NCBI RefSeq assembly: GCF_000384395.1
Contig: NZ_ARWE01000001.1
Location: forward strand, 1,604,894 to 1,668,893
DNA: 64,000 nucleotides
Source of the DNA: Geopsychrobacter electrodiphilus DSM 16401
GTDB taxonomy: Bacteria > Desulfobacterota > Desulfuromonadia > Desulfuromonadales > Geopsychrobacteraceae
Direction: 5' to 3'
The position numbers were made by a program, and so were the translations under genes. Below are positions 1,341 through 55,916 of the stretch, in pieces. Below the pieces are notes generated by a model. That model was not told where the DNA came from. It did no database searches and worked only from the letters and a program-made list of their open reading frames with translations. The first letter of the stretch is position 1; each line of letters starts with the position of its first letter.

Positions 1341-1374
1341 ATGGCTGGCCCTCAAAGGGCCGGTCATTTTTTTT
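1341..1374 (+). terminator. Rho-independent terminator after pyc
   Basis: The arms GGCCCT and AGGGCC enclose the loop CAA, and flanking bases extend the stem to about 12 bp with GU pairs. Eight T follow on the plus strand. The T-run reaches into the stop codon of the convergent ptsP gene. Confidence 0.85.
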
Positions 1375-3715
1375 AGGAAAACTTCTTAATCGCCCGGGCA
1401 AGGCGTTTTCGAATGTCCTTGCTGCTGCTCATCTGTAATATTTCGGCTGCGACTCCTTGTGCTTCTTCTCTGGAAATTTTGCTGATAAAGTCTTTCATGT
1501 GGGGAATGTAAGGCGCGGAGAGTGAAAACTGGTCAATCCCTAAGCCGATCAGGGCATAGAGGCAGTTGTTGTCGGAGGACATTTCACCACAAAGACACAG
1601 ATCGATCTTCTTGTTTCGCGCGACATTCGCGAGATCTGCCAGAGCGCCGAGAACCGCCGGGTGCAGGGGGTCGTAGTAGCTTTGCACCAGAGAGTTAGAA
1701 CGGTCGGCGGCGAGCAGGTATTGGATGAGGTCATTGGTGCCAAGAGCAAAAAAATCAACTTCATTCGCAAGGTGCGGCGCAAGTCTGAGCGCCGCCGGAA
1801 CCTCGATCATGGCTCCAATCGGGATGTCGCCTAGAAATTCAATCTTCTCCTCTTGTAAATGGGCCATAGCTTTTACCACCAGCTTTCGGCAGGCCCTGAT
1901 CTCTTCTATATTGGAAATTAACGGGAAAAGCAGACGCGTCGGTCCGTGAACACCCGCCATCAGGATTGCTTCAATCTGGGTCTGAAAGACATCTTTATGG
2001 TCCAGACTGATCCGTATCGAACGCCAACCCATAAACGGATTGTCCTCTTTGGGGTGATTGAAATAGGGGAGAGCCTTATCTCCGCCGATATCAAGGGTGC
2101 GGATGGTGACGGGGGCTCCGCTAAATTCTTCGATTACTTTCCGATAGAGTTGATATTGATCATCCCGGTTGGGGAAATTGCTCCGTGCCATATAGGGGAA
2201 TTCAGTACGGTAAAGCCCGACTCCTTCTGCCCCGTTGCGCTTGGCAATTTCGATATCGCTGAGCAGACCGATGTTGGCCCGTAGTTGGATGCGCTGACCG
2301 TCTTGGGTGAGGGCCGGCTTGTCGCGAAAGGTGTTAAGTCGTTCTTTCTCTTGGGTAAGATCAAACTCCAGGCGAAAATATTCATCCAGAATTGTCGCGT
2401 TTGGATTGAGAAAAACACAACCCGAATTAGCGTCAAGAATCAGTTCAGCGCCTGGCTCGATTCGGGCCATTGCTCCCTGAACCCCAATCAGGGCCGGTAT
2501 CCCCAGCGCCTTGGCCATAATGACGGAGTGAGCATTGGTCTCATTCGATTCGATTATGAGACCTGAAATTTTATCGTGATCAATGCTCGCCATGTCAGAA
2601 GGAAGCAGGCGATGAGCTACCAGAATTCCCGTATGCTGGAGATGAAGGCGGCCTGATTTCTGCCCCAGCAGGTGACTGAGCAAGCGGCGTCCGATGTCTT
2701 CCATATCCGCAGCTCGTTCGCGCAGATAGGCGTCCTCCATCTTGCCAAAGGCTTCAAGGTAGTTTCTGATAACCTTTTTTAAGGCATAGGGGGCGCTATG
2801 CCCCTCATCGATCAGCTCATGGAGTTTTTCGATAAAGCCGCGGTCTTCCAGGATCATCAAATGGGTATGAAAAATGGCGGCATCTGCTTGAGTCAGGCGC
2901 TCCGCGACCCTTTTTTCCAGGTAGAGGGTCGCGATGCGGGTCTTGCGCAGCGCTTCATCAAGACGCGCCAACTCTTGTTCGATATTGACATCATATTCAG
3001 CATGAACATCCGAGAAGCCGAGTTCGTCATTAATCAAATTGGCGGGCCCGACAATAACACCGGGATAGGCGACTTTCCCCCGCAGTACTGTTTGTCCGCC
3101 CGGGGTTGTCGAATTTCTGAAGGAGCCGGGCTGTGAGCCTTCTGCAGCAGGAAGAGACGGGTGCTCTGAGGGTTCCTGTTGGCGGTCAATGGTGTCTAGC
3201 AGGCGAGCATTCACCACGATGGAGGAGACCTGAAAAGCGATAGTCGAAAGGGTTGAGGTTTCCTCTTCAGTGAAGACCCTGCGTTCCAGCGTCTGGATAA
3301 CCATGACCCCGAGAGGTTCATTCCGGTCAAAGAGAGGGATGGCCAGAAATGAATGGAACTGCTCCTCACCGGTGCCGGCAAAATAGCGGTAGCGGGGATC
3401 ACTTTGCGGTTCTTCAATTGAGAGGATGCTGCGTTGTTGGGCGGCAAGGCCGGTGAGCCCCTCGCCGATTTTCAGCTTTACCCTGCCGACAGATTCAGGT
3501 GCGAGTCCGCAGGTAGCGCGGAGAACCAGCGTGTCACTATTGTCATCCAAAAGGTATAGCGAACAGACTTCAGAATGTGCTCGTTCGGCGACCAGGGTGA
3601 CAATATTTTCCAGGGTCTCGTTGAGGTGGTGCGATTGCAGGATGATGGTGCTGATATCCTGTAACGTACTTAGCCCGAGGCGTTTATCTGATTTTTTGAG
3701 GTTTTTGAAGCCCAA
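1373..3715 (-). CDS. ptsP: Phosphoenolpyruvate-protein phosphotransferase PtsP (EI-Ntr)
   Basis: This is the 780-residue first enzyme of the nitrogen phosphotransferase relay. It takes phosphate from PEP onto a histidine and passes it to NPr. Residues ~20-180 are a GAF domain, the EI N-terminal domain starts near LRGKVAYPGV (~210), the swivelling phospho-His domain has NAHSVIMAKALGIPA with His396, and the C-terminal PEP-binding barrel shows EGVGLYRTEF, GAMIEVPAA, FFALGTNDLIQY and the catalytic CLCGEMS. The GAF domain distinguishes PtsP from sugar-PTS EI. The start is a TTG at 3713-3715; an in-frame stop lies just upstream and the Shine-Dalgarno sequence (CAGGGCGG) is weak. A terminator at 3791-3833 separates it from the upstream gene, so it probably has its own promoter in 3716-3790. 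Confidence 0.94.
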   Translation of the reverse strand: MGFKNLKKSDKRLGLSTLQDISTIILQSHHLNETLENIVTLVAERAHSEVCSLYLLDDNSDTLVLRATCGLAPESVGRVKLKIGEGLTGLAAQQRSILSIEEPQSDPRYRYFAGTGEEQFHSFLAIPLFDRNEPLGVMVIQTLERRVFTEEETSTLSTIAFQVSSIVVNARLLDTIDRQQEPSEHPSLPAAEGSQPGSFRNSTTPGGQTVLRGKVAYPGVIVGPANLINDELGFSDVHAEYDVNIEQELARLDEALRKTRIATLYLEKRVAERLTQADAAIFHTHLMILEDRGFIEKLHELIDEGHSAPYALKKVIRNYLEAFGKMEDAYLRERAADMEDIGRRLLSHLLGQKSGRLHLQHTGILVAHRLLPSDMASIDHDKISGLIIESNETNAHSVIMAKALGIPALIGVQGAMARIEPGAELILDANSGCVFLNPNATILDEYFRLEFDLTQEKERLNTFRDKPALTQDGQRIQLRANIGLLSDIEIAKRNGAEGVGLYRTEFPYMARSNFPNRDDQYQLYRKVIEEFSGAPVTIRTLDIGGDKALPYFNHPKEDNPFMGWRSIRISLDHKDVFQTQIEAILMAGVHGPTRLLFPLISNIEEIRACRKLVVKAMAHLQEEKIEFLGDIPIGAMIEVPAALRLAPHLANEVDFFALGTNDLIQYLLAADRSNSLVQSYYDPLHPAVLGALADLANVARNKKIDLCLCGEMSSDNNCLYALIGLGIDQFSLSAPYIPHMKDFISKISREEAQGVAAEILQMSSSKDIRKRLARAIKKFS

Positions 3716-3790
3716 GATATTTAGCCGCCCTGTTTAAGAATAAGCTCTGTTTCCTAGGTTATTCTACCGTAGAGGGGGACGTTTGACAGT

Positions 3791-3833
3791 AAAAAAAACG
3801 CCGCCAGGGGGAGAGAGGTCCCTGACGGCGAAA
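3791..3833 (-). terminator. Strong intrinsic terminator (minus strand)
   Basis: Read on the minus strand, the arms CGCCGTCAGGG and CCCTGGCGGCG pair over 11 bp with one GU pair, around a C-rich 10-nt loop, and eight T follow (3791-3798). It ends the candidate small RNA or read-through from the upstream regulator gene and insulates ptsP. Confidence 0.88.
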
Positions 3834-3911
3834 GAAGGGATTGATCTGTGACACTTATCCGTTCGGGCGGGAACGGGTTATATCCCTTGTTGCAATAGGT
3901 GTTGCATTCGA
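3791..3911 (-). ncRNA. Candidate ~120-nt sigma54-dependent small RNA
   Basis: No convincing protein gene lies in 3716-4148. The minus strand shows a complete small transcription unit: a sigma54 promoter at 3938-3923, a predicted start near 3911-3913 and an intrinsic terminator ending at 3791. The predicted RNA carries an internal hairpin (CCGTTC, loop CCGCCC, GAACGG) and a terminal 11-bp hairpin whose loop is ACCTCTCTCC, followed by eight U. Both loops are C-rich; the terminal one resembles an anti-Shine-Dalgarno sequence. A 9-codon reading frame (ATG CAA CAC ... TAA) starts near the 5' end but has no ribosome-binding site. Alternatively this could be a leader of ptsP ending in a strong attenuator. 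Existence and ends are inferred from sequence only. Confidence 0.6.
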
Positions 3912-3922
3912 TGAAATATCCT

Positions 3923-3938
3923 AGCAATAGTTATGCCA
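3923..3938 (-). promoter_or_regulatory. Sigma54 (RpoN) promoter, -24/-12
   Basis: On the minus strand the sequence is TGGCAT-AACTA-TTGCT. It has the invariant GG and GC dinucleotides exactly 10 bases apart and differs from the consensus TGGCAC-N5-TTGCA only at the sixth and last positions. It points leftward and would start an RNA near 3912. Three related palindromes lie at about -106, -184 and -216 from that start, the usual distance for sigma54 enhancers. Confidence 0.72.
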
Positions 3939-4009
3939 TGGTTTGAGCTGGAGAAAAACGCCAGTTTTTAAGCTTTTTCTGGGCTGAACGGAGAAATAAG
4001 TGATCAGTT

Positions 4010-4027
4010 TGTGTCACATGTGGCACA
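4010..4027. promoter_or_regulatory. Palindromic activator site A (TGTGTCA-N4-TGGCACA)
   Basis: The halves are 7 bp on a 4-bp spacer (CATG) with one mismatch between arms. It is centred about 106 bp upstream of the predicted start of the sigma54 promoter and shares its right half, TGGCACA, with the next two sites. Confidence 0.6.
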
Positions 4028-4082
4028 GTTTGATTAACACTGTGGGTGTTTTTGACGAACAGGTGTGGCGTTTGGGCGTTTG

Positions 4083-4110
4083 TTGGATGTGCCAGATATG
4101 GCACATCCAA
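4083..4110. promoter_or_regulatory. Palindromic activator site B (perfect 12-bp arms)
   Basis: The core TGTGCCA-GATA-TGGCACA (4088-4105) is a perfect 7-4-7 palindrome and the symmetry extends five more bases each side (TTGGA/TCCAA). It is centred near -184 of the sigma54 start. It could fold as RNA, but no T-run follows on either strand that would make it a good terminator. Confidence 0.65.
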
Positions 4111-4119
4111 CAGTTGTTT

Positions 4120-4137
4120 TGTGACGCAGATGGCACA
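4120..4137. promoter_or_regulatory. Palindromic activator site C (TGTGACG-N4-TGGCACA)
   Basis: The right half is identical to sites A and B and the left half keeps TGTG. It begins 32 bp, about three helical turns, from site B and lies 11 bp beyond the regulator's stop codon. Confidence 0.55.
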
Positions 4138-4148
4138 ATCGGTCAGGT

Positions 4149-6437
4149 TTATTTGCGGGCAAATGTGATGTTCTGACGCTGCAGCATACGGTAAAACGTA
4201 CGACGCGGGATGTCGGCCATGCGCGCAGCGGCAGAAACGTTGCCGCCTGCTTCTGCAAGGTAGTGCAGCATCAAGTCTTTTTCAATGGTATGCAGTTGTT
4301 GATCCCGTTGATTCCTTAAACCTGTTATCTCTTGCAAAAGATTCTGACCATTCTTCTGCCGTAATTGCTCAGCTAAAACCACCGGCAACTGTTCAAGGTG
4401 AATAATTTGGTCGGGAGAGAGTACGGACGCGCGTTCAATAACATTCTGCAACTCACGGATATTCCCGGGCCAATGGTAGCAGGAAAGTGCCTTTAATGCT
4501 GTTTCATCAATTCGGTGAATAGTCTTGTTCAATCGGGTTGATGCCTGATTAAGAAAGTGTTCAGCCAGCTTCGGGATTGACTCGAGCCGTTCGCGTAAGG
4601 GAGGCAGGGTAATGCTGAAGACATTGATGCGATAGAAGAGGTCTTCGCGAAACCAGCCCTGAGCTATGCCGTCTTCGAGATGCTTATTGGTTGCCGCAAT
4701 AACCCTGACATCGACTCGAACGCTCGCTGTACTTCCGACCGGTTTTATCTCGCCACTGTCCAGGACTCTCAAGAGCTCAGCTTGCAGTTTCGGGGTGATG
4801 TCGCCAATTTCATCAAGGAAAATAGTGCCACCATCGGCCGCTTCAAAGAGCCCTTTCTTATTCGCGATGGCGCCGGTGAAGGAGCCTTTTTTATGACCGA
4901 AAAGTTCACTTTCGAGCAAACTGTCAGTCAAGGTGGTGCAGTTGACCGTGACCAGAGGATTTTCAGCGCGCAAGCTGGCCTGGTGAATCGCGCGGGCGGT
5001 TAACTCTTTTCCGGTACCACTCTCCCCGCGAATCAAGACCGAGGTCGGCGTTGGCCCGACCTGGGCAATTAATTGGCGGACACCCTGGGTTCGGCTGTCG
5101 GTGCCGATAATATCGTCACTCCCGTAGCTTTGGTCGAGGGCCCGTCGGACAAGATGGTACTTGCGTTCGAGTTTTGACCGGTCGTCTTCGAGACGTTTTT
5201 GCGAATAGGGGTGACACATGCCGACTTCGGCAAGCCCCTGAAAAACGGCAACCGCATGTTCATGGCAGGTGCTGTAACCACAACACCCGCAATTGAGTTC
5301 ATCGTTGACTGAGAATTTATCGGTCTCGTGAAGGATGCGTGTCAGGGCCTCGCTGCTCGGTTGGTCCATCAGTTGTTGACGATCTGAAAAGCCGCGAGTC
5401 AGCTGGACTCGACCAGTCCCTGCGCTGTATCTGGGGGAAGATTGATAGGGAATCTGTTTCTGCCGATACTCAATAATCAGGTTGCGTTTCGAAAATGCGG
5501 TGAGTTTGTTCGTGCGTCCAGGCCCGCCGATACATCCGCCGGTGCAGAAGCGGACATCGACGTAGCGTGGTGCAATCCGCTGTGCGGCGATATCCCGAAT
5601 AACCTCCATAGTCGCTTCTTCACCAACGGTTGAGATGAACTTTGGGTCGAGACCGTCATGACCGATGCCGAAGATGTGAAATGGTCCGCCGGCAATGGAA
5701 AAGCTGCGACCATTCAGGGTGCTGTTGCCGTTAAAGGGTTCCGGCAGAAGGCGTCGCGGATCTATCCGGTTTTTTTCGAGAATTTTCTTGAGTTCTTTAT
5801 AGGTCAGAACCGTATCAACGGCTCCGGCAACCTCTTCATCTTCGATCTCAAACTTCCCGCCGATGCACGAACTGATATAGATCACCTTGACCGGTTGATC
5901 ATGACAGGATTTTATGTAGCGCCCAATCGCGACCATCGGTGAAACGATCGGTACCAGATTACCCAATAACTGCGGATAGTGACGTTCAATCAGGTCGACG
6001 ACTGCGGGGCAGTGACTTGAAATCAGCGGTACGCCATTGTCGCGACCGAGAAGATTCCGATATTCAGGAGCAATCAGTTCAACCCCTGCTGCTCCTTCCA
6101 GCACATCGACAAACCCGAGTTGCCTTAAAGCCGTTGCCAGTTGGCCGGGTTCAAGATCAAAGAAAAAGGCTGGATAAGAACAGCCGAGAACCGCCACTAC
6201 CGGGGTGGCTTCATTCAGCAGGCGTTCCGTAACCCCAATGGAATCAGAAATTACTTTTGCTCCCTGAGAGCAGGCCTGAATACATTTGCCGCAGCCGATA
6301 CAGCGCTCGTTCAGGACGACGGCGCAGTCCTTTCTGATTCCAATTGCTTTGGTGGGGCAGGTGCGCACGCAGGCGTAGCATTTACGACAGCGGCTGGCAA
6401 TGGTCTTGATCGGTCCTTGATTGTACGCTTCTGGCAT
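4149..6437 (-). CDS. [FeFe]-hydrogenase-like sensor fused to sigma54 activator
   Basis: This 762-residue protein joins a redox sensor to a bacterial enhancer-binding protein. Two 4Fe-4S motifs come first (C17/20/23/27 and C46/49/52/56). An [FeFe]-hydrogenase large-subunit domain follows with the four H-cluster cysteine positions kept: SSHCP (C143), SSCIGGKFE (C191) and FCTGGCIGG (C298, C302). A further Fe-S motif, CGCCGYSTC, lies near 370-395. The AAA+ domain has GESGTGKE, the sigma54-contact loop GSFTGA (Ser for the usual Ala), FLDEIGD and WPGNIREL, and a Fis-type helix-turn-helix ends the protein. In catalytic hydrogenases the residue before C143 is a proton-relay Cys; here it is His142, and the L2 motif is also altered, so sensing is likelier than turnover. 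The ATG at 6435-6437 follows AAAGGGGAA; a longer frame upstream has no such support. It probably acts on sites A-C downstream of it and on the site at 6486-6503. Confidence 0.88.
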   Translation of the reverse strand: MPEAYNQGPIKTIASRCRKCYACVRTCPTKAIGIRKDCAVVLNERCIGCGKCIQACSQGAKVISDSIGVTERLLNEATPVVAVLGCSYPAFFFDLEPGQLATALRQLGFVDVLEGAAGVELIAPEYRNLLGRDNGVPLISSHCPAVVDLIERHYPQLLGNLVPIVSPMVAIGRYIKSCHDQPVKVIYISSCIGGKFEIEDEEVAGAVDTVLTYKELKKILEKNRIDPRRLLPEPFNGNSTLNGRSFSIAGGPFHIFGIGHDGLDPKFISTVGEEATMEVIRDIAAQRIAPRYVDVRFCTGGCIGGPGRTNKLTAFSKRNLIIEYRQKQIPYQSSPRYSAGTGRVQLTRGFSDRQQLMDQPSSEALTRILHETDKFSVNDELNCGCCGYSTCHEHAVAVFQGLAEVGMCHPYSQKRLEDDRSKLERKYHLVRRALDQSYGSDDIIGTDSRTQGVRQLIAQVGPTPTSVLIRGESGTGKELTARAIHQASLRAENPLVTVNCTTLTDSLLESELFGHKKGSFTGAIANKKGLFEAADGGTIFLDEIGDITPKLQAELLRVLDSGEIKPVGSTASVRVDVRVIAATNKHLEDGIAQGWFREDLFYRINVFSITLPPLRERLESIPKLAEHFLNQASTRLNKTIHRIDETALKALSCYHWPGNIRELQNVIERASVLSPDQIIHLEQLPVVLAEQLRQKNGQNLLQEITGLRNQRDQQLHTIEKDLMLHYLAEAGGNVSAAARMADIPRRTFYRMLQRQNITFARK

Positions 6438-6485: not shown

Positions 6486-6503
6486 TGTGCCATTAGTGGC
6501 ACG
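6486..6503. promoter_or_regulatory. Palindromic activator-type site D upstream of the sensor gene
   Basis: TGTGCCA-TTAG-TGGCACG has the same 7-4-7 design as sites A-C with one arm mismatch. It lies 49-66 bp before the ATG of the hydrogenase-like regulator, in the 91-bp gap after oppF. No sigma54 promoter is visible here, so autorepression or autoregulation through another promoter is possible. Confidence 0.5.
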
Positions 6504-39111: not shown

Positions 39112-39188
39112 GCGCCAGTAGCTCAGTTGGATAGAGCATGTGACTTCTAATCACAGGGCCGAGGGTTCGAATCCTTCCTGGCGCGCCA
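39112..39188 (+). tRNA. tRNA-Arg (anticodon UCU)
   Basis: The acceptor GCGCCAG pairs with CTGGCGC, the anticodon arm is TGTGA-CTTCTAA-TCACA (UCU at 34-36) and the T-loop is TTCGAAT. The CCA end is encoded. It reads AGA codons and is first of three clustered tRNAs. Confidence 0.95.
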
Positions 39189-39259
39189 CCTTCTGAAATA
39201 GAGATCTTTTAGCGGTTGACATTGTTTCATGTTGTTCTTAGGATAGCCGAACTTTTTAT

Positions 39260-39336
39260 GGTGGGTGTAGCTCAGTCGGTAGAGCACTGGATTGTGGCTC
39301 CAGATGTCGCGGGTTCAAGCCCCGTCACTCACCCCA
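39260..39336 (+). tRNA. tRNA-His (anticodon GUG)
   Basis: The acceptor GTGGGTG pairs with CACTCAC, and the extra 5' G at 39260 faces C73, the histidine identity pair. The anticodon arm CTGGA-TTGTGGC-TCCAG gives GUG. CCA is encoded at 39334-39336. Confidence 0.95.
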
Positions 39337-39418
39337 TAACAGACAATACTCACCTTCCGGCCCGGGAGCCAGTCTCACTTGATTGGTGGGTGTGGAATGT
39401 GAGTTTTTCTTTACTATT

Positions 39419-39503
<85 letters not shown>

Positions 39504-45787: not shown

Positions 45788-45864
45788 GGGGCTGTAGTAG
45801 AGTCGGTTACAACGCCGGCCTGTCACGCCGGAGGTCGCGGGTTCAAGTCCCGTCAGCCCCGCCA
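45788..45864 (+). tRNA. tRNA-Asp (anticodon GUC), copy 1
   Basis: The acceptor GGGGCTG pairs with CAGCCCC, the anticodon arm CCGGC-CTGTCAC-GCCGG gives GUC, the T-loop is TTCAAGT and CCA is encoded. The D-stem GTAG/CAAC contains an A-A mismatch. It is identical over 77 nt to the copy at 45969. Confidence 0.94.
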
Positions 45865-45873
45865 TTTTCGATC

Positions 45874-45949
45874 GGGCGAATAGCTCAGCTGGGAGAGCGC
45901 CTGCCTTACAAGCAGGATGTCGGGGGTTCGAGCCCCTCTTCGCCCACCA
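45874..45949 (+). tRNA. tRNA-Val (anticodon UAC)
   Basis: The acceptor GGGCGAA pairs with TTCGCCC, the anticodon arm CCTGC-CTTACAA-GCAGG gives UAC, the T-loop is TTCGAGC and CCA is encoded. It sits between the two tRNA-Asp copies. Confidence 0.95.
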
Positions 45950-45968
45950 AATCAAGCAAATGTTCTAT

Positions 45969-46045
45969 GGGGCTGTAGTAGAGTCGGTTACAACGCCGGC
46001 CTGTCACGCCGGAGGTCGCGGGTTCAAGTCCCGTCAGCCCCGCCA
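45969..46045 (+). tRNA. tRNA-Asp (anticodon GUC), copy 2
   Basis: This is an exact duplicate of the 77-nt gene at 45788 with the same D-stem mismatch and encoded CCA. The exact identity points to recent duplication or gene conversion. Confidence 0.94.
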
Positions 46046-55780: not shown

Positions 55781-55802
55781 GAAATCCAAAAAAGATCGCT
55801 GA

Positions 55803-55897
55803 AGCATGCCGCTTCCCTACGCCGGTATGACCCGGATCAGGTACAAGGGGTCGCTTTACGTCATGTAAAGCTCTCAGTGTCAGGCACGCCCCCAGGG
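55803..55897 (-). promoter_or_regulatory. TPP riboswitch (THI element)
   Basis: On the minus strand the conserved elements occur in order: GGGGGCGTGCC, CTGAGA, ACCTGATCCGGGTCATACCGG and CGTAGGGAAGC. The variable P3 arm (GCTTTACATGACGTAAAGC) is a hairpin. It precedes the thiFSGHE operon by a terminator, so control is by transcription attenuation. Confidence 0.95.
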
Positions 55898-55916
55898 CTT
55901 TTATTTAATTCGGCTA

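What the first reader, a model, noticed from the sequence alone, without database searches (positions are those of the whole stretch)
3791..6437. Hydrogenase-like sigma54 sensor next to its own enhancer array, sigma54 promoter and non-coding RNA
The minus strand holds, in order: a gene fusing [FeFe]-hydrogenase-like and sigma54-activator domains (4149-6437); three 7-4-7 palindromes (4120-4137, 4088-4105, 4010-4027); a -24/-12 promoter with the invariant GG-N10-GC (3938-3923); and a strong terminator (3833-3791). The palindromes fall at about -216, -184 and -106 of the predicted start, classic for sigma54 enhancers. Nothing between promoter and terminator encodes a protein, so the simplest product is a ~120-nt small RNA. 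That would be an H2- or redox-responsive small RNA circuit packed into 2.7 kb, which I do not know to be described.
Basis: partly seen in the sequence, partly recalled or inferred. Interest (0 to 1): 0.92.

Follow-up and report, generated by a model that had tools for sequence, protein, structure and literature searches.

The report
Hydrogenase-like sensor driving a TCA-cycle RNA
In Desulfuromonadales bacteria the gene of a hydrogenase-like iron-sulfur regulator sits beside the conserved gene of a structured RNA; the regulator is predicted to switch on this RNA, which would likely block production of citrate synthase and malate dehydrogenase, whereas in Geobacter relatives the same kind of regulator gene and promoter precede the gene of a protein repressor, HgtR, instead.

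Summary
The anatomy is real and conserved. In 60 loci (window plus 59 relatives) 58 carry YGTGYCA-N4-TGRCACR sites behind the activator gene (shuffles 0.1) and 59 a -24/-12 promoter (shuffles 1.5). In 57 an RNA follows, in 3 Geobacter-type loci a small ORF. The RNA's terminator helix covaries; Rfam has no match; 81 of 81 activator genomes of the order have the RNA, 7 of 55 others. H2 sensing through a true H-cluster is unlikely: HydF is missing from 79 of 81. The near-invariant loop CUCUCUCC complements the Shine-Dalgarno of citrate synthase (>=7 nt in 74 of 75 RNA+ genomes) and malate dehydrogenase (49 of 53); background 11 of 450 ORFs. Against this, several genera without the RNA keep that Shine-Dalgarno. 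In Geobacter relatives the same promoter module precedes hgtR, reported to repress citrate synthase. I read this as one sensor module with two exchangeable outputs, RNA or protein repressor. Transcription and pairing are predicted, not measured.

The parts
4149..6437 (-). sigma54 activator with hydrogenase-like iron-sulfur sensor domain (762 aa)
4120..4137 (.). activator site 1 (enhancer), 2 mismatches to the palindrome
   Evidence: conserved array in relatives
4088..4105 (.). activator site 2, perfect TGTGCCA-N4-TGGCACA
4010..4027 (.). activator site 3, 1 mismatch
6486..6503 (.). site upstream of the activator gene, likely autoregulatory
   Evidence: present in 55 of 60 loci versus 0.5 in shuffles
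3923..3938 (-). -24/-12 (sigma54) promoter TGGCATAACTATTGCT
3793..3912 (-). predicted non-coding RNA, about 120 nt (start inferred from promoter spacing)
   Evidence: alignment of 55, model R1 hit 3793-3903, 78.6 bits, E 1.6e-14 (the window RNA is one of the sequences the model was built from), no Rfam match at gathering score
3835..3888 (-). 5' helix AAGGGAU/AUCCCUU (3888-3882 with 3841-3835), enclosing hairpin 3876-3859
   Evidence: stem extraction in 55 RNAs; hairpin in the 15-sequence consensus
3791..3830 (-). terminator hairpin (3830-3820/3809-3799) and T-run
   Evidence: 94.3% of cells paired, 7 of 11 pairs with two-sided changes in 55 RNAs
3810..3817 (-). near-invariant loop CUCUCUCC, predicted seed
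   Evidence: each of the 8 columns holds the same base in at least 50 of 55 RNAs

Best explanation
The locus holds a sigma54 activator gene whose sensor domain is related to [FeFe]-hydrogenases, followed by conserved palindromes, a -24/-12 promoter and a conserved structured RNA gene; the activator is predicted to bind the palindromes and switch on the RNA, whose terminator loop CUCUCUCC would likely pair with the Shine-Dalgarno sequences of citrate synthase and malate dehydrogenase mRNAs and lower acetate oxidation. Shown by sequence comparison: the conserved anatomy, the RNA structure, the gene linkage, and the complementarity to the start regions of gltA and mdh. Inferred: the sensor carries only [4Fe-4S] clusters and reads the reduction state of the cell (for example reduced ferredoxin when H2 or formate is plentiful or electron acceptor is short); the activator opens the promoter from the sites that lie about 100-225 nt upstream of the inferred start; the RNA blocks ribosome binding. 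In Geobacter relatives the homologous activator, site and promoter precede hgtR, a repressor reported to downregulate citrate synthase, so one sensor-promoter module appears to have two exchangeable outputs that converge on the same enzyme.
For: Linkage: 81 of 81 activator genomes in the order carry the RNA, 7 of the other 55 do, one copy each. Structure: (covariation score 0.268, shuffles 0.133; slid controls 0.035-0.103). Loop: each column of CTCTCTCC the same in >=50 of 55. Targets: gltA >=7-nt complement in 74 of 75 RNA+ genomes read, mdh 49 of 53; background 11 of 450 mechanical ORFs of >=200 aa, PtsP 0 of 44, OppD 1 of 31, Tex 0 of 16, OppF 0 of 6, activator 1 of 58. In the own genome the loop complement upstream of ATG was searched before any target was known (24 places, 6 for the reversed pattern); 13 of them start ORFs of >=77 aa with a gap of 2-6 nt (one, L153, looks spurious by eye), and 3 of these 13 are citrate synthase, malate dehydrogenase and succinyl-CoA:acetate CoA-transferase. 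Duplex energy of the loop with gltA -16.3 and mdh -15.2 kcal/mol (2 and 15 of 500 shuffles as low). HgtR: the ORF behind the same promoter in L081 has homologs named hydrogen-dependent growth transcriptional repressor, and L078 and L080 have like ORFs; 29 of 30 hgtR loci fetched have palindrome and promoter, 22 have the activator within 600 nt; PMC2725144 states that an EBP gene lies upstream of GSU3364 with a predicted RpoN promoter (passage).
Against: No transcript, binding or repression was measured. In 9 genomes of the same family activator and RNA are cleanly absent between oppF and ptsP, yet where their gene starts were read GGAGAGAG is kept before gltA in 7 of 7 and before mdh in 6 of 7; over all RNA- genomes read it is gltA 22 of 35 and mdh 18 of 37. 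So the match does not depend on the RNA and may partly be a clade habit or a relic; it is lost in unnamed families f17 (gltA 12 of 12, mdh 13 of 13) and f11 (mdh 4 of 4) and in G134 (both) and G026 (mdh). GGAGAG is also a plain strong Shine-Dalgarno. RNA+ exceptions: gltA in G081, mdh in G043, G068, G101, G102. Seven genomes keep the RNA without a detectable activator. Targets other than gltA and mdh were not tested across genomes. gltA in Geobacter, which would be an outgroup, was not read.
Confidence: 0.6

Rival explanations
1. The activator is a true H2 sensor: its hydrogenase domain holds a complete H-cluster, and the RNA is induced by H2 directly.
For: All four H-cluster ligand cysteines are kept in 60 of 60 homologs; domain order and the exact Cx2Cx4Cx16C motif match putatively sensory group C/D hydrogenases described in PMC8163306 (passages); HgtR, the output of the module in Geobacter, is reported to be H2-induced (passage).
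Against: HydF over its cut-off is missing from 79 of 81 activator genomes, the complete own genome included; the two exceptions are a HydF match with two stops (G072) and a genome with 7% contamination and two copies (G124). HydE and HydG were not searched.
Confidence: 0.12
2. The RNA is an attenuated leader or regulator in cis of ptsP, which often lies just downstream.
For: ptsP starts within 1 kb of the activator stop in 42 of 60 loci, and oppF-activator-RNA-ptsP is the common order.
Against: The RNA is also there where no ptsP was found in 4.9 kb or more of downstream DNA (L041, L044, L056, L057, L069, L073, L074, L077, L079) and where ptsP is 3.9 kb away (L060, L087); the product ends in a strong terminator; a sigma70-like promoter seems to lie between terminator and ptsP (read by eye).
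Confidence: 0.1
3. The RNA is real and activator-controlled, but its loop acts on other mRNAs or on a protein; the gltA/mdh match is only a strong, shared Shine-Dalgarno type.
For: gltA and mdh keep GGAGAGAG in related genera without the RNA; the loop is complementary to any GGAGAG-type site.
Against: Only 2 of 450 neighbouring ORFs have an 8-nt match, while 60 of 75 gltA and 37 of 53 mdh in RNA+ genomes have GGAGAGAG; the Geobacter output HgtR is reported to control the same enzyme.
Confidence: 0.25

Closest known systems
HgtR (GSU3364) of Geobacter and the EBP gene upstream of it
   Same: Homologous full-length activator in L078, L080, L081 (54-57% identity), same palindrome about 100 nt before a -24/-12 promoter, reported repression of citrate synthase (passage).
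   Different: Output is a 59-63-aa ribbon-helix-helix-type protein there; here it is a structured RNA with no conserved ORF. Model R1 finds no RNA in the 30 hgtR loci or L078, L080, L081.
Putatively sensory [FeFe]-hydrogenases, groups C and D (TmHydS, TamHydS)
   Same: Two N-terminal 4Fe-4S motifs, H-domain, C299 replaced, C-terminal Cx2Cx4Cx16C.
   Different: sigma54 AAA+ and HTH_8 follow the sensor, where group C has PAS; HydF missing from 79 of 81 genomes.
RoxS/RsaE of Bacillus and Staphylococcus
   Same: Respiration-linked RNA with C-rich regions that pair with Shine-Dalgarno sequences (passages of PMC4409812); TCA-cycle or central-metabolism role per titles and abstracts.
   Different: Controlled by ResDE/SrrAB two-component systems; no sequence relation found (no Rfam match).
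sigma54-controlled RNAs: Qrr and CrcZ (listing only; details recalled) and four predicted ones in Desulfovibrio vulgaris (PMC4641369, abstract and passages)
   Same: An enhancer-binding protein drives a non-coding RNA, in some cases adjacent (ncRNA downstream of DVU0653 and DVU0679).
   Different: Sensor type differs (mostly two-component regulators in the passages seen); RNA sequences were not compared.

Membership tests
sigma54 enhancer-binding protein | Sigma54_activat AAA+ domain plus HTH | tested here: met
   PF00158 222.9 bits, PF02954 34.6 bits, both over cut-off
sigma54-dependent promoter | GG-N10-GC -24/-12 element, conserved | tested here: met
   59 of 60 loci, shuffles mean 1.5; transcription not measured
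[FeFe]-hydrogenase group C/D (HydS) | N-terminal 2x4Fe-4S, H-domain with four Cys ligands, C-terminal Cx2Cx4Cx16C | tested here: met
   the four ligand Cys and the four C-terminal Cys in 60 of 60; the eight N-terminal Cys in 58-59 of 60
[FeFe]-hydrogenase group C/D (HydS) | H-cluster maturation genes in the genome | tested here: not met
   HydF over cut-off in 2 of 81 activator genomes, one with two stops, one in a contaminated assembly; HydE/HydG not searched
[FeFe]-hydrogenase group C/D (HydS) | H2 turnover or H2-dependent spectral change | not testable with these tools
   needs purified protein
trans-acting small RNA | own promoter, terminator, conserved structure, no conserved ORF | tested here: met
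   expression not measured
trans-acting small RNA | conserved pairing to target mRNAs | tested here: inconclusive
   gltA 74/75, mdh 49/53 in RNA+, but kept in several RNA- genera
HgtR circuit | hgtR gene behind the promoter | tested here: not met
   an RNA lies there instead; no HgtR-like protein at E<=1e-6 in the own genome
RoxS/RsaE | Rfam family match | tested here: not met
   of six weak Rfam matches up to E 10 in 3760-4150 none is RoxS/RsaE; best E 0.09, far below gathering score

The most novel reading that the evidence does not exclude
A single iron-sulfur sensor, enhancer and sigma54 promoter module governs entry of acetate into the citric-acid cycle across the class, but its output has been swapped in evolution: a ribbon-helix-helix DNA-binding repressor (HgtR) in Geobacter and its kin and a base-pairing RNA aimed at the ribosome-binding sites of citrate synthase and malate dehydrogenase in Desulfuromonadales, an exchange of protein for RNA repression behind a conserved sensor.
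Probability: 0.55. Interest if true: 0.9.

Novelty: new variant of a known kind. Interest (0 to 1): 0.82.

Why it matters
Metal-, sulfur- and electrode-respiring bacteria of this group must match acetate oxidation to electron supply and demand. If true, this gives Desulfuromonadales a respiratory-control RNA with a defined sensor, promoter, seed and targets; it suggests how HgtR is controlled in Geobacter (its upstream activator would be this hydrogenase-like protein); it offers a case of protein-for-RNA replacement at a fixed regulatory node; and it would show a hydrogenase fold used as a cofactor-poor sensor.

Tried and rejected
RNA in Rfam: no match at gathering score in the window or in 13 relatives; weak matches from E 0.09 below cut-off. 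Further activator sites in the genome: the only other <=1-mismatch site is inside an ORF without promoter; the 2-mismatch sites away from this locus were not followed. A coding leader: no conserved ORF (ORFs that end inside the RNA); frames of 26-29 codons occur in 3 of 55 RNAs. A diverged RNA in family members that lack a hit: oppF and ptsP are directly adjacent in G003, G009, G025, G026, G027 and G039-G042 and model R1 finds nothing there. The f17 genomes (unnamed; HydF present) were tried as the H2-sensing version; their homologs (42-44% identity) have the same HCP motif and four cysteines in the 6 looked at, a palindrome variant upstream in 5 of 6, and no RNA. CsrA sponge: GGA motifs lie mostly in stems and the near-invariant loop has none (reading, no call). 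VIA-align: all 50 entries shown are [FeFe]-hydrogenases; other folds not listed are not thereby excluded. Papers: searches found none; the listings (titles and abstract starts) showed no report of this RNA or of the hydrogenase-like activator; Ueki and Lovley 2010 is not held, so HgtR facts come from passages of PMC7894505, PMC7726332 and PMC2725144. Rows dropped: L035 (its terminator missed my regular expression) and L086 (my 600-nt slice ended inside the RNA) were left out of A1; L045 (no DNA downstream) and L022 (no forward match) were left out; gltA starts were read in 110 of 122 genomes with a match and mdh in 90 of 115 (cap on stretches). The automatic 5'-stem extraction picked a stem other than GGG/CCC in part of the RNAs; that helix was not scored.
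Full report

More than chance. In 59 relatives plus the window, 58 of 60 have a site within 2 mismatches downstream of the activator (shuffles mean 0.1), 59 of 60 a high-scoring -24/-12 promoter (mean 1.5) and 55 of 60 a site upstream of the activator (mean 0.5). In the own genome 3 of the 4 sites with at most one mismatch are at this locus; the fourth is inside an ORF without such a promoter.

The RNA. Behind the promoter 57 of these 60 loci have the same kind of RNA; 55 were aligned. The terminator helix is 94.3% paired with two-sided changes at 7 of 11 pairs and a covariation score of 0.268 against 0.133 in shuffles and at most 0.103 when slid. A second, 5' helix occurs as GGGAU/AUCCC, GGGAG/CUCCC, GGGGC/GCCCC or GGGCA/UGCCC in different relatives; it was not scored formally, and in part of the RNAs the automatic extraction picked another stem. 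The ten-nt terminator loop is (A)CCUCUCUCC; each of the eight columns of CUCUCUCC holds the same base in at least 50 of 55. No ORF is conserved. A covariance model finds one copy in each of 88 of 136 genomes of the order, including all 81 with an orthologous activator and 7 of 55 without (Fisher p about 1e-29, not corrected for relatedness). In those 7 the RNA sits between oppF and ptsP; a TGGCA-N8-GC promoter just upstream is found in 6 (not L131) and a palindrome within 2 mismatches in 2 (L132, L133).

What the sensor is. The four cubane-ligand cysteines (143, 191, 298, 302) are present in 60 of 60; the position of CpI C299 is His 142, invariant in 24 aligned homologs. HydF, needed for the diiron site in the canonical pathway (recalled), is over its cut-off in 18 of 136 genomes of the order; only 2 of these are among the 81 activator genomes, one with two stops inside, one in a contaminated assembly. 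I therefore infer a [4Fe-4S]-only, redox-reading sensor. HydE and HydG were not searched. The domain order otherwise equals that of putatively sensory group C/D hydrogenases (passages of PMC8163306).

What the RNA may do. Before knowing any target I searched the own genome for the loop complement GGAGAGAG 2-14 nt before ATG: 24 places, 6 for the reversed pattern. Among the 13 that start an ORF of at least 77 aa with a gap of 2-6 nt are citrate synthase, malate dehydrogenase and succinyl-CoA:acetate CoA-transferase. Across the order, gltA has at least 7 complementary nt in 74 of 75 RNA+ genomes read (8 in 60) and mdh in 49 of 53 (GGAGAGAG in 37). Background is 11 of 450 mechanical ORFs of at least 200 aa for 7 nt and 2 of 450 for 8 nt. 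The result against: RNA- genomes keep it in 22 of 35 (gltA) and 18 of 37 (mdh), chiefly close relatives; in 9 such genomes of the family activator and RNA are cleanly absent between oppF and ptsP, yet gltA keeps it in 7 of 7 and mdh in 6 of 7 that were read. It is gone in 12 of 12 f17 genomes for gltA and 17 of 17 f17/f11 genomes for mdh, and in G134 and (mdh) G026. So the Shine-Dalgarno is conserved far beyond background, but not strictly with the RNA.

The Geobacter link. Three loci whose records are named Geobacter or Geobacteraceae (L078, L080, L081) have the activator and promoter but no RNA; an ORF of 59-63 aa of one kind follows. Homologs of the L081 ORF include proteins named hydrogen-dependent growth transcriptional repressor. 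In the class, a homolog at E<=1e-6 occurs in 137 of 141 genomes outside the order (unnamed; presumably Geobacterales, recalled) and in 4 of 136 inside, all four weak. Of the 30 best hgtR loci, 29 have the palindrome at about -185 and the promoter at about -83 of the start codon, 22 the activator within 600 nt; none has the RNA. PMC2725144 (passages) notes an EBP gene upstream of GSU3364; PMC7894505 (passages) states that H2 induces HgtR, which downregulates citrate synthase, and reports GltA 3.5-fold and Mdh 7-fold higher on acetate than on H2. The three HgtR-type activators group together in a quick tree with long branches (SH-aLRT 100); the direction of the swap is not settled. Three RNA-bearing records (L061, L066, L077) are also labelled Geobacteraceae by their depositors.

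Reading. One sensor-enhancer-promoter module, two outputs, the same metabolic step. I give 0.6 to the RNA lowering gltA/mdh translation under activator control, about 0.9 to the activator driving the RNA, and low odds to direct H2 sensing by a full H-cluster. Nothing has been measured in cells.

Noticed in passing
55796-55903 (-): TPP riboswitch (Rfam RF00059, 69.7 bits).
   Followed up: no
39112-39500 and 45788-46042 (+): Two clusters of three tRNA genes each.
   Followed up: no
1373-3715 (-): PtsP-type protein (GAF plus PEP phosphotransferase) directly downstream; 12 of 14 genomes of one genus in the same family (g3) have no match at E<=1e-200, and none of the 14 has activator or RNA.
   Followed up: partly
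L129-L135: Seven genomes keep the RNA without a detectable activator; 6 keep a sigma54-like promoter and 2 a palindrome, so another activator may drive it.
   Followed up: partly
L115-L120: In unnamed family f17 a fast-evolving activator (42-44% identity) has a changed half-site TGTGGCA-N4-TGGCACA upstream in 5 of 6 and no RNA.
   Followed up: partly
L167, L182: A small symporter-type protein (recognised by eye as DUF4212-like) in two genomes of the genus (G023, G022) has GGAGAGAGG before its start codon, a further possible target; G022 has no RNA hit.
   Followed up: no
L143 (own genome C1:1108304-1108317): Succinyl-CoA:acetate CoA-transferase has GGAGGAGAGAGAGA before ATG; conservation across the order was not tested.
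   Followed up: partly
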